64,000 nucleotides of DNA from Pelotomaculum schinkii (GTDB lineage: Bacteria > Bacillota > Desulfotomaculia > Desulfotomaculales > Pelotomaculaceae). Numbering within the stretch: the stretch's first letter is position 1; each line of letters begins with the position of its first letter. Below the pieces are notes generated by a model that worked only from the letters and a program-made list of their open reading frames with translations, was not told the DNA's origin and did not search any database. This document shows, piece after piece, positions 26,721 to 28,450 of the stretch. The stretch covers positions 1 to 64,000 of the forward strand of contig NZ_QFGA01000004.1 in NCBI RefSeq assembly GCF_004369205.1. Reading direction: 5' to 3'. Both the position numbers and the translations under genes were made by a program.

Positions 26721-26795
26721 TATATTCCATCACGTTTAAGGGGTATAATAGAAGTACATGCCGCCAATGTCCATAACAAAAACATCAAACATCTA

Positions 26796-26825
26796 TTGAT
26801 GCGAACACAAGTTCTGCGATAAAAT
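26796..26825 (+). promoter_or_regulatory. SOS (LexA/DinR)-type promoter
   Basis: -35 TTGATG (26796-26801) and -10 TAAAAT (26820-26825), spacer 18. The palindrome CGAACACAAGTTCTG (26802-26816) lies between them. GAAC-N4-GTTC is the Gram-positive LexA box and its place inside the promoter would allow repression. No other SOS gene is present nearby. Confidence 0.6.
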
Positions 26826-26871
26826 GGTAACGGTTAGCAGGTAAACTATATATAGCTGAGTGAGAATATAA

Positions 26872-26973
26872 GTGAAAGGGAAAAGGGTTTCTCAGCAGTT
26901 ACATCCAATGAATGTAAGCGGCGAAGATATTAGCTTACGAAGTGGAATCCTTTTGCAACTGCCTCCTGTTTAG
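26872..26973 (+). CDS. Hypothetical 33-aa peptide in an SOS-type unit
   Basis: The GTG start has GAGTGAG seven bases upstream. It encodes 33 residues beginning MKGKRVSQQLHPMN and ending LLQLPPV; no family recognised. The unit is complete in itself: LexA-type promoter 45 bases upstream, Shine-Dalgarno, ORF, then a strong palindrome. The same DNA can form several hairpins, two of which exclude each other: TTACAT/ATGTAA (26899-26917) and GTAAGC/GCTTAC (26914-26938). A structured regulatory RNA is an equally good reading. Confidence 0.35.
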   Translation: MKGKRVSQQLHPMNVSGEDISLRSGILLQLPPV

Positions 26974-26985
26974 TCGGCAGGAGCG

Positions 26986-27015
26986 AAATCCAAACAAAGG
27001 CCTTTGTTTGGATTT
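26986..27015 (+). terminator. 15-bp perfect palindrome ending the SOS-type unit
   Basis: AAATCCAAACAAAGG directly joined to CCTTTGTTTGGATTT, followed by TAG. A second hairpin CTCCTG/CAGGAG precedes it (26963-26983). Probably the terminator of the small unit and of the CvpA operon, before the aminopeptidase gene. Confidence 0.65.
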
Positions 27016-27034
27016 TAGAAACCAGGCCTAAACA

Positions 27035-28450
27035 ATGCATGTCGATAAGGAGTACCCTGCTCAAACACTTGCTTACAGCAGGCGCAATGTCTGGGACAGG
27101 ATGTCTAATCAGGAAAAAGCTACGACCATGGGCTTTTGTGAATACTATAAGAGATACTTAAACGATTGTAAAACAGAAAGAGAAGCGGTTGATGTAACTG
27201 TTGCTCAACTGCGGGGCGCCGGCTTTCTACCCCTGGGTGGGAGTGTCCGGTTAAAGGCAGGGGACAAAATATTTGCAGTCAACCGCCAAAAGGCTCTCAT
27301 CGCTGCAGTCATTGGCAGCAAACCACTGGAGTACGGGCTGAACCTGGTGGGGGCGCATGTAGACAGCCCGCGACTGGATCTCAAGCCGCAACCTCTGTTT
27401 GAAGAAGAAGGTTTGGCCCTCTTGAAAACCCATTATTATGGTGGAATTAAAAAGTACCAGTGGCTGTCGCTCCCCCTGGCCCTGCACGGGGTGGTCGTCA
27501 AGGGGGACGGCAACGCCGTTCCTGTGGTAATAGGAGAGGCGCCGGGAGACCCGGTTTTTACTATTACAGATCTGTTGCCTCACCTGGCCAAGGACCAGAT
27601 GGAGAAAAAAATGATTGACGCCGTACCCGGTGAAAGCTTGAATGTCCTGGCCGCAGGCATGCCGCTGGGCGGGGTTGATCTGAAGGAACGTTTTAAATTA
27701 TATGTCCTCGAATACCTCCATCGCATATACGGGATTAACGAAGAGGATCTGATCAGCGCTGAACTCGAACTCGTCCCGGCCTGGTCTGCCAGGGACACCG
27801 GTTTGGACCGGAGTTTCGTCGCCGCTTACGGTCAAGACGACCGTGTTTGCGCTTACACTGCTCTGAGGGCTATAATTGATACGCCCAACCCTATACGGAC
27901 ATCCATGCTGCTGCTGGCCGATAAGGAAGAAATAGGCTCTCTCGGCAACACCGGGATGAATTCGGCTTTTTTCGAGCATACGGTTGCGGAAATCGTCTCA
28001 CGCTGCACGCCATCTTACAGCGATCTCCTTGTACGGCGGGTACTTGCTAACTCCTTTGCCCTTTCAGCCGATGTAAATGTAGGTTTGGATCCCAATTTCG
28101 GGGATGTAGTTGAGAAAATGAACACTGCCCGCCTGGGCTGTGGTGTGGTCTTAACCAAATATACAGGAAGCCGCGGCAAATCTTCTTCCTCCGACGCTCA
28201 TGCTGAAGTGGTGGCCACGATCAGGAGGTTGTTTAACAGCGCCGCAGTAACCTGGCAGACTGGAGAACTTGGTAAGGTAGACCAGGGCGGGGGCGGGACT
28301 ATCGCCCACTTCCTGGCAGAGCACGGCATGGATGTCCTTGATTGCGGGGTGCCCCTGCTGGGTATGCATTCTCCCCTTGAGGTGGCCAGCAAGGCGGATA
28401 TCTACATGGCCTACCAGGGCTACCGGGCTTTTCTGGCTGGCTTACAATGA
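27035..28450 (+). CDS. M18 family aminopeptidase
   Basis: 471 aa, a di-zinc exopeptidase that removes N-terminal residues from peptides, expected in the cytoplasm as a dodecamer. Metal-site motifs are visible: GAHVDSPRLDLKP (His near residue 108), DKEEIGSLGNTG (Glu pair near 289), SSDAHAE (Asp) and the final HSPLEV. The length fits the M18 family. ATG 27035 has only a weak ribosome site (CCAGG); an in-frame ATG at 27101 is an alternative. Confidence 0.9.
   Translation: MHVDKEYPAQTLAYSRRNVWDRMSNQEKATTMGFCEYYKRYLNDCKTEREAVDVTVAQLRGAGFLPLGGSVRLKAGDKIFAVNRQKALIAAVIGSKPLEYGLNLVGAHVDSPRLDLKPQPLFEEEGLALLKTHYYGGIKKYQWLSLPLALHGVVVKGDGNAVPVVIGEAPGDPVFTITDLLPHLAKDQMEKKMIDAVPGESLNVLAAGMPLGGVDLKERFKLYVLEYLHRIYGINEEDLISAELELVPAWSARDTGLDRSFVAAYGQDDRVCAYTALRAIIDTPNPIRTSMLLLADKEEIGSLGNTGMNSAFFEHTVAEIVSRCTPSYSDLLVRRVLANSFALSADVNVGLDPNFGDVVEKMNTARLGCGVVLTKYTGSRGKSSSSDAHAEVVATIRRLFNSAAVTWQTGELGKVDQGGGGTIAHFLAEHGMDVLDCGVPLLGMHSPLEVASKADIYMAYQGYRAFLAGLQ

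What the first reader, a model, noticed from the sequence alone, without database searches (positions are those of the whole stretch)
26796..27015. Self-contained SOS-box unit encoding a 33-aa peptide or a structured RNA
Within 220 bp there is a promoter (TTGATG-18-TAAAAT) with a Gram-positive LexA box GAACACAAGTTC in its spacer, a Shine-Dalgarno, a 33-codon GTG ORF and a 15-bp perfect palindrome. Two hairpins inside (TTACAT/ATGTAA and GTAAGC/GCTTAC) share bases and exclude each other, like an attenuator. SOS-induced small proteins in other bacteria include division inhibitors and type I toxins. No known family or riboswitch is recognised, so it may be new.
Basis: partly seen in the sequence, partly recalled or inferred. 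Interest (0 to 1): 0.65.

Follow-up and report, generated by a model that had tools for sequence, protein, structure and literature searches.

The report
Decayed SOS-driven IS607 element remnant
The 220-bp unit is not a new stand-alone SOS gene: it is an old, shrunken copy of a jumping gene (IS607/TnpB type) that inserts into ribosome-binding sites, and the wider family carries a conserved DNA-damage-response switch and a structured guide-type RNA.

Summary
The sequence features exist, but the unit is not self-contained. It is one of nine copies in its genome of a dispersed IS607-type element. An intact relative there encodes a serine recombinase TnpA, a TnpB-like protein and a 3' structured RNA. 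The window copy is non-autonomous: promoter, LexA box and a partly deleted 3' RNA remain. A covariance model built without it finds it (46.8 bits, E=2.7e-10). Copies sit between a GGAGG Shine-Dalgarno and the start codon; the 15-bp palindrome is the right-end hairpin. The LexA box is real at family level: 15 of 26 left ends carry it at fixed distance (reversed-motif control 0), in a promoter matching the host's own ruvC. At this locus it is degraded in both orthologues. The 33-aa ORF is broken in G001 and lacks silent changes, so no peptide is supported. However, the RNA body is unusually conserved between sister species (4/164 versus 36/234 four-fold sites, p=1e-5), including a compensatory pair. 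Best reading: fossil element whose RNA persists as a leader of the M18 aminopeptidase gene. Family novelty: SOS-controlled, RNA-only IS607 satellites with an RNA absent from Rfam.

The parts
26738..26743 (+). Probable remnant of the target (Shine-Dalgarno/TAM-like AAGGGG) at the decayed left end
   Evidence: Inferred: lies 60 nt before the LexA box, the spacing from GGAGG to the box in intact copies such as L060; sequence itself has decayed
26744..26795 (+). Decayed left end of the element (transposase-binding region in intact copies)
   Evidence: Alignment with L003/L006 copies and orthologues; weak similarity, inferred by position
26796..26825 (+). Promoter TTGATG-18-TAAAAT
   Evidence: same architecture in paralogues (TTGACA-18-TATAAT type) and in the host ruvC promoter
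26803..26814 (+). LexA box GAACACAAGTTC, intact here, one mismatch in each orthologue
   Evidence: host SOS genes carry the same box
26863..27026 (+). Remnant of the element's structured 3' (omega-type) RNA; internal core lost by deletion after about 26910
   Evidence: Paralogues, orthologues, conservation test
26885..26892 (+). GGGTTTCT: 5' strand of the closing helix that pairs with AGAAACC at the right end
   Evidence: Minimum-energy fold; matching strand seen in 42 of 66 right ends examined; nearly invariant, so no covariation support
26872..26973 (+). 33-codon GTG ORF, judged not a gene
   Evidence: Frameshifted in G001; one replacement and no silent change against G002
26918..27026 (+). 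Match to covariance model R1 of the family's 3' RNA domain (window and orthologues held out of the model)
   Evidence: 46.8 bits, E=2.7e-10 in the window, 1.9e-8 in the genome
26986..27015 (+). Right-end hairpin (the 15-bp perfect palindrome)
   Evidence: homologous hairpin in the other copies with compensatory changes; A26992-T27009 becomes G-C in G002
27018..27026 (+). Right terminus GAAACCAGG ending in the GG crossover dinucleotide
   Evidence: Shared by nearly all copies (GAAACGAGG in a few), followed by unrelated sequence
27035..28450 (+). Downstream host gene (M18-type aminopeptidase), start codon 8 nt after the right end
   Evidence: relatives without the element have GGAGG just before the start. 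Family name from own recognition of the sequence

Best explanation
The unit is a fossil, non-autonomous copy of an IS607-type (serine recombinase plus TnpB) element. Shown by sequence: intact relatives have a left end preceded by GGAGG, a promoter with a LexA box, tnpA, tnpB and a structured 3' RNA ending at GAAACCAGG; non-autonomous relatives keep ends, promoter and RNA but lack both genes. Inferred from published IS607 work: TnpA inserts the element at GG dinucleotides, and the RNA, read through the right end, carries the adjoining host DNA as guide for TnpB, so chromosomes that lose the element are cut and repaired from a copy that still has it. Inferred: LexA control ties transposase and guide RNA expression to DNA damage, when RecA repair is available. 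In the window the copy has lost part of its RNA core and most of its left end, so it is probably immobile and not a working guide. Its RNA now forms the region just before the aminopeptidase start codon, where it appears to be under selection and probably acts as a 5' leader or promoter-bearing unit of that gene.
For: Paralogues in the same genome; intact copy L094 with TnpA scoring 199.6 bits against the IS607 transposase model (cut-off 110) and a TnpB-like protein. Held-out covariance model finds the window copy and nine copies genome-wide, 122 matches in 37 of 113 genomes of the order. 13 of 28 model pairs show compensatory changes. 43 of 57 right ends have a start codon of an ORF of at least 60 aa 4-25 nt on, random 17%. 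Left ends follow GGAGG, matching the AGGAG motif measured for related IS607 TnpBs (PMC11061315) and GG targeting (PMC6188088). LexA box: 15 of 26 left ends, control 0; host ruvC, Y-family polymerase and DnaE-like genes use the same box. RNA body 4/164 changed against 36/234 four-fold sites.
Against: No expression, LexA-binding or transposition data. TnpB scores below the NCBIfam cut-off (59.9 against 100), its third RuvC acid is not conserved and its fold could not be modelled well (pLDDT 52.6), so guide-RNA function of the 3' RNA is by analogy. The left end in the window is too decayed to align with confidence. The conservation test rests on one pair of genomes.
Confidence: 0.85

Rival explanations
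1. A new SOS-induced small gene: LexA-controlled 33-aa peptide (division inhibitor or type I toxin).
For: Promoter, box and short ORF are present; ORF is open in G002.
Against: ORF is frameshifted in G001, only one replacement and no silent change against G002 although four-fold sites differ by 15%, no good Shine-Dalgarno, and the ORF lies inside a structured RNA shared with dozens of paralogues.
Confidence: 0.03
2. The palindrome in the promoter is an operator for the element's own TnpA (self-control at the left end), not a LexA box.
For: IS607-type TnpA coats about 8-78 bp of the left end (PMC6188088) and the box lies about 60 bp in; it occurs at fixed spacing in the element family.
Against: The box equals the host's own SOS box in ruvC (TTGACACGAACATCAGTTCC, same promoter layout) and in the Y-family polymerase gene; several intact elements lack it altogether, which is odd for a transposase site.
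Confidence: 0.2
3. An IStron: a group I intron plus IS607 whose splicing restores the split Shine-Dalgarno.
For: IS607-based IStrons that insert at GG targets are known (PMC4227781); copies sit before genes such as ribosomal protein genes, where loss of the Shine-Dalgarno should hurt.
Against: No group I or any other Rfam family matches these RNAs, even at E up to 10; the promoter lies inside the element and the conserved RNA helices are downstream of it.
Confidence: 0.05
4. A purely dead fossil with no present role.
For: Deletion of the RNA core, decayed left end, LexA box degraded in both orthologues.
Against: RNA body shows 2.4% change against 15.4% at neighbouring four-fold sites (Fisher p=1.2e-5) with a compensatory pair in the terminal hairpin.
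Confidence: 0.3

Closest known systems
IS607-family insertion sequences (serine recombinase TnpA + TnpB)
   Same: TnpA passes the IS607 equivalog model; ends in GG, targets contain GG (PMC6188088)
   Different: LexA-box promoter; gene-free derivatives that keep the RNA; insertions concentrated between Shine-Dalgarno and start codon
IS607 TnpB with RAGATH-18-derived reRNA (PMC11061315)
   Same: Structured RNA downstream of an IS607 tnpB; measured TAM AGGAG equals the left flank found here
   Different: RAGATH-18 model does not match the RNA here; TnpB here is about 480-490 aa, not about 390; in autonomous copies a helix strand lies within the tnpB end, whereas the published reRNA is outside the coding sequence
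Group B IStrons (IS607 + group I intron, PMC4227781)
   Same: IS607 component, GG targets, conserved RNA, copies without genes
   Different: No group I intron detected
SOS-regulated transposases (for example Tn5 under LexA, from own knowledge)
   Same: LexA-type box over the transposase promoter
   Different: Different transposase class; here gene-free copies keep the box in front of the RNA alone

Membership tests
IS607-family element | TnpA: N-terminal MerR-type HTH plus serine recombinase domain | tested here: met
   Intact copy L094: NF033518 199.6 bits, cut-off 110; Pfam Resolvase and MerR. Window copy itself has no gene
IS607-family element | Insertion at GG dinucleotide | tested here: met
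   Right ends finish ...CCAGG, left flanks GGAGG; relatives' uninterrupted sites have GGAGG
TnpB RNA-guided nuclease system | TnpB with RuvC catalytic triad | tested here: inconclusive
   D286 and E347 invariant, third acid replaced by S/N/V/T-H-E/Q/A; below NCBIfam cut-off; model unreliable
TnpB RNA-guided nuclease system | Right-end RNA with conserved fold next to the guide | tested here: met
   13 of 28 pairs with compensatory changes, RNA runs to the element's end; guide use not tested
RAGATH-18 reRNA family | Match to the RAGATH-18 covariance model | tested here: not met
   No match in Rfam 15 scans up to E=10
IStron | Group I intron in the element | tested here: not met
   No Rfam intron match; splicing itself not testable
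LexA/SOS regulon | LexA box over the promoter, shared with host SOS genes and kept among copies | tested here: met
   Family: 15 of 26 left ends, control 0; host ruvC and others. At the window locus orthologues each have one mismatch
LexA/SOS regulon | LexA binding and induction by DNA damage | not testable with these tools
   Needs footprint and expression data
SOS small peptide gene | Conserved reading frame | tested here: not met
   Frameshift in G001; no silent changes against G002

The most novel reading that the evidence does not exclude
A family of SOS-controlled IS607 satellites made of ends, a LexA promoter and a guide-type RNA only, which live on the TnpA and TnpB of intact copies and split Shine-Dalgarno sequences of host genes; DNA damage, including the breaks made by TnpB itself, would raise transposase and guide RNA when recombination can copy the element back. 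The window copy would be one of these, domesticated as a leader RNA of a peptidase gene.
Probability: 0.35. Interest if true: 0.7.

Novelty: new variant of a known kind. Interest (0 to 1): 0.5.

Why it matters
TnpB systems are the ancestors of CRISPR-Cas12, and how their expression is timed relative to DNA repair is open. A conserved LexA box on both the transposase promoter and the gene-free, RNA-only copies would make the link between SOS and RNA-guided element maintenance directly testable. The element's preferred target coincides with the Shine-Dalgarno sequence, so one simple rule explains why copies sit before start codons of many genes, some of them core genes. The family's RNA is not in Rfam 15.

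Tried and rejected
Rfam scans of the window and of ten loci with copies gave no relevant family (a STnc490 hit at L002 686-794 lies outside the element and below its gathering score). HEARO, group I intron and RAGATH-18 were considered and not matched. Peptide or toxin gene: rejected on frame conservation. Attenuator with two exclusive hairpins: rejected, one hairpin is a deletion artefact. AlphaFold model of TnpB was too poor to search with, and no solved structure matched by sequence. Phage records hold only distant TnpBs, under 60% identity. Paper searches for IS607 with LexA, TnpB with SOS and LexA, and TnpB with Shine-Dalgarno found no prior report, but only open-licence papers were searched; the 2024 Science paper on IS607 IStrons is known to me only from memory.

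Full report
What was checked. By itself the LexA box means nothing: 0.72 such sites are expected per window and the genome has fewer of them (41) than of the reversed pattern (86).

It is a repeat. Searching the host genome with the unit found paralogues, some over the promoter and 5' part, some over the 3' part. Reading them showed elements of about 400-470 nt with the same promoter and a longer conserved RNA, of which the window holds a shortened version. A search with the hisI copy gave more copies in the genome and matches in 33 of 100 genomes.

It is an IS607-type element. One copy (L094) contains, between the same left and right ends, a 218-aa protein with MerR-type HTH and resolvase domains that scores 199.6 bits on NCBI's IS607 transposase model, and a 490-aa TnpB-like protein. 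Named carriers of the TnpB are Pelotomaculum, Desulfotruncus arcticus, an unnamed Peptococcaceae and a Desulfosporosinus MAG. Gene-free copies keep left end, promoter, RNA and right end. Three gene-free copies in G005 are nearly identical inside but lie at unrelated sites, so such copies have moved recently.

Where it inserts. Nearly every copy ends in GAAACCAGG, and 43 of 57 right ends are followed within 4-25 nt, mostly 7-8, by a start codon of an ORF of at least 60 aa; random positions give 17% (several of the 14 exceptions are antisense matches). Recognisable left ends follow GGAGG: 26 of 51 candidates from a deliberately loose pattern do so, the others being mostly chance matches of that pattern. 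The elements therefore separate Shine-Dalgarno sequences from their start codons. Relatives without the element have GGAGG just before the aminopeptidase start. This agrees with GG targeting by IS607 (PMC6188088) and with the AGGAG motif measured for 18 of 22 IS607 TnpB strains (PMC11061315).

The RNA. Thirty copies, with the window and its orthologues left out, gave an alignment with 28 consensus pairs, 13 of them with changes on both sides. The model finds the window at 26918-27026 (46.8 bits, E=2.7e-10), nine copies in the genome and 122 in 37 of 113 genomes of the order. No Rfam family matches. A closing helix between GGUUUC on the 5' side and GAAACC at the right end is seen in the minimum-energy fold; its 5' strand lies near the end of tnpB in intact copies and in AGGUUUCU in gene-free ones, in 42 of 66 right ends examined. 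It does not vary, so covariation cannot test it.

The LexA box. Of 26 left ends preceded by GGAGG, 15 have GAACNNNNGTTC with at most one mismatch 51-57 or 70-71 nt inside; the reversed motif gives none. It is present in intact and in gene-free copies of several host families, and absent in others. The host's ruvC promoter reads TTGACACGAACATCAGTTCCGAAATAATATGG, the same layout as the element promoter; a Y-family polymerase gene and a DnaE-like gene have boxes too. LexA is therefore the likeliest binder. TnpA binding at that place is the main rival, because IS607-type TnpA coats the left end to about 78 bp.

The window copy. Orthologous copies exist in G002 and G001, both in the same genus. G001 lacks the internal deletion shared by the window and G002. 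Each orthologue has one mismatch in the LexA box. The 33-aa frame breaks in G001. Against G002 the RNA body (26863-27026) differs at 4 of 164 sites while four-fold sites of the next gene differ at 36 of 234 (Fisher p=1.2e-5); two of the four changes form a compensatory pair, A26992-T27009 to G-C. Silent positions of the ORF are as frozen as the rest, which points to RNA or DNA rather than protein. Another old copy, before livH, is less constrained (19/241 against 17/111), so this is not a general property of old copies.

How it most likely works. Shown: anatomy, family, target preference, conserved RNA fold, conserved box. Inferred: TnpA moves the element; the RNA guides TnpB to empty sites; LexA couples both to DNA damage; the window copy can no longer do this and its RNA persists as a leader of the aminopeptidase gene. 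Weak points: the TnpB has an altered RuvC-III motif and scores under the family cut-off, its fold could not be modelled, and nothing here measures expression.

Verdict. The finding is a member of a known kind of element, decayed. The family around it is a new variant: SOS-box promoters, gene-free copies that keep the guide-type RNA, and an RNA not in Rfam.

Noticed in passing
L094 1207-2676 and alignment A3: TnpB of this family lacks the usual RuvC-III Asp (S/N/V/T-H-E/Q/A instead, H413 invariant) and shows no zinc-finger motif; it may be inactive or use another residue.
   Followed up: partly
L060, L061, L062, L059: In G005 a roughly 100-nt insert with inverted-repeat ends (CCCAGCACTCAACCTA...TAGGTTGAGTG) sits in the same loop of the element RNA, in both orientations: a miniature element nested in the element.
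   Followed up: no
L117 855-953: TPP riboswitch (74.1 bits) with an intact IS607 element inserted just downstream, after a GGAGG.
   Followed up: no
L055, L025, L026, L023, L060: Copies sit directly before genes that look like pyrG, gltX and ribosomal proteins L28, L9 and L32 (by eye from the translations).
   Followed up: partly
G000:C1:52489, C1:680726, C1:706047, C4:263761: Host SOS-type boxes before ruvC, a Y-family polymerase, a DnaE-like polymerase and a radical SAM protein.
   Followed up: partly
L092/L099 and L093/L065: Two other old copies are kept at orthologous sites within the genus (before livH and a YlbF-like gene); the latter ends GAAACGAGG, which restores a better Shine-Dalgarno.
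   Followed up: partly
G047 (13 matches): Thirteen near-identical element RNAs in one genome, suggesting recent activity; the copies read (L113, L114, L216) lack the LexA box.
   Followed up: no
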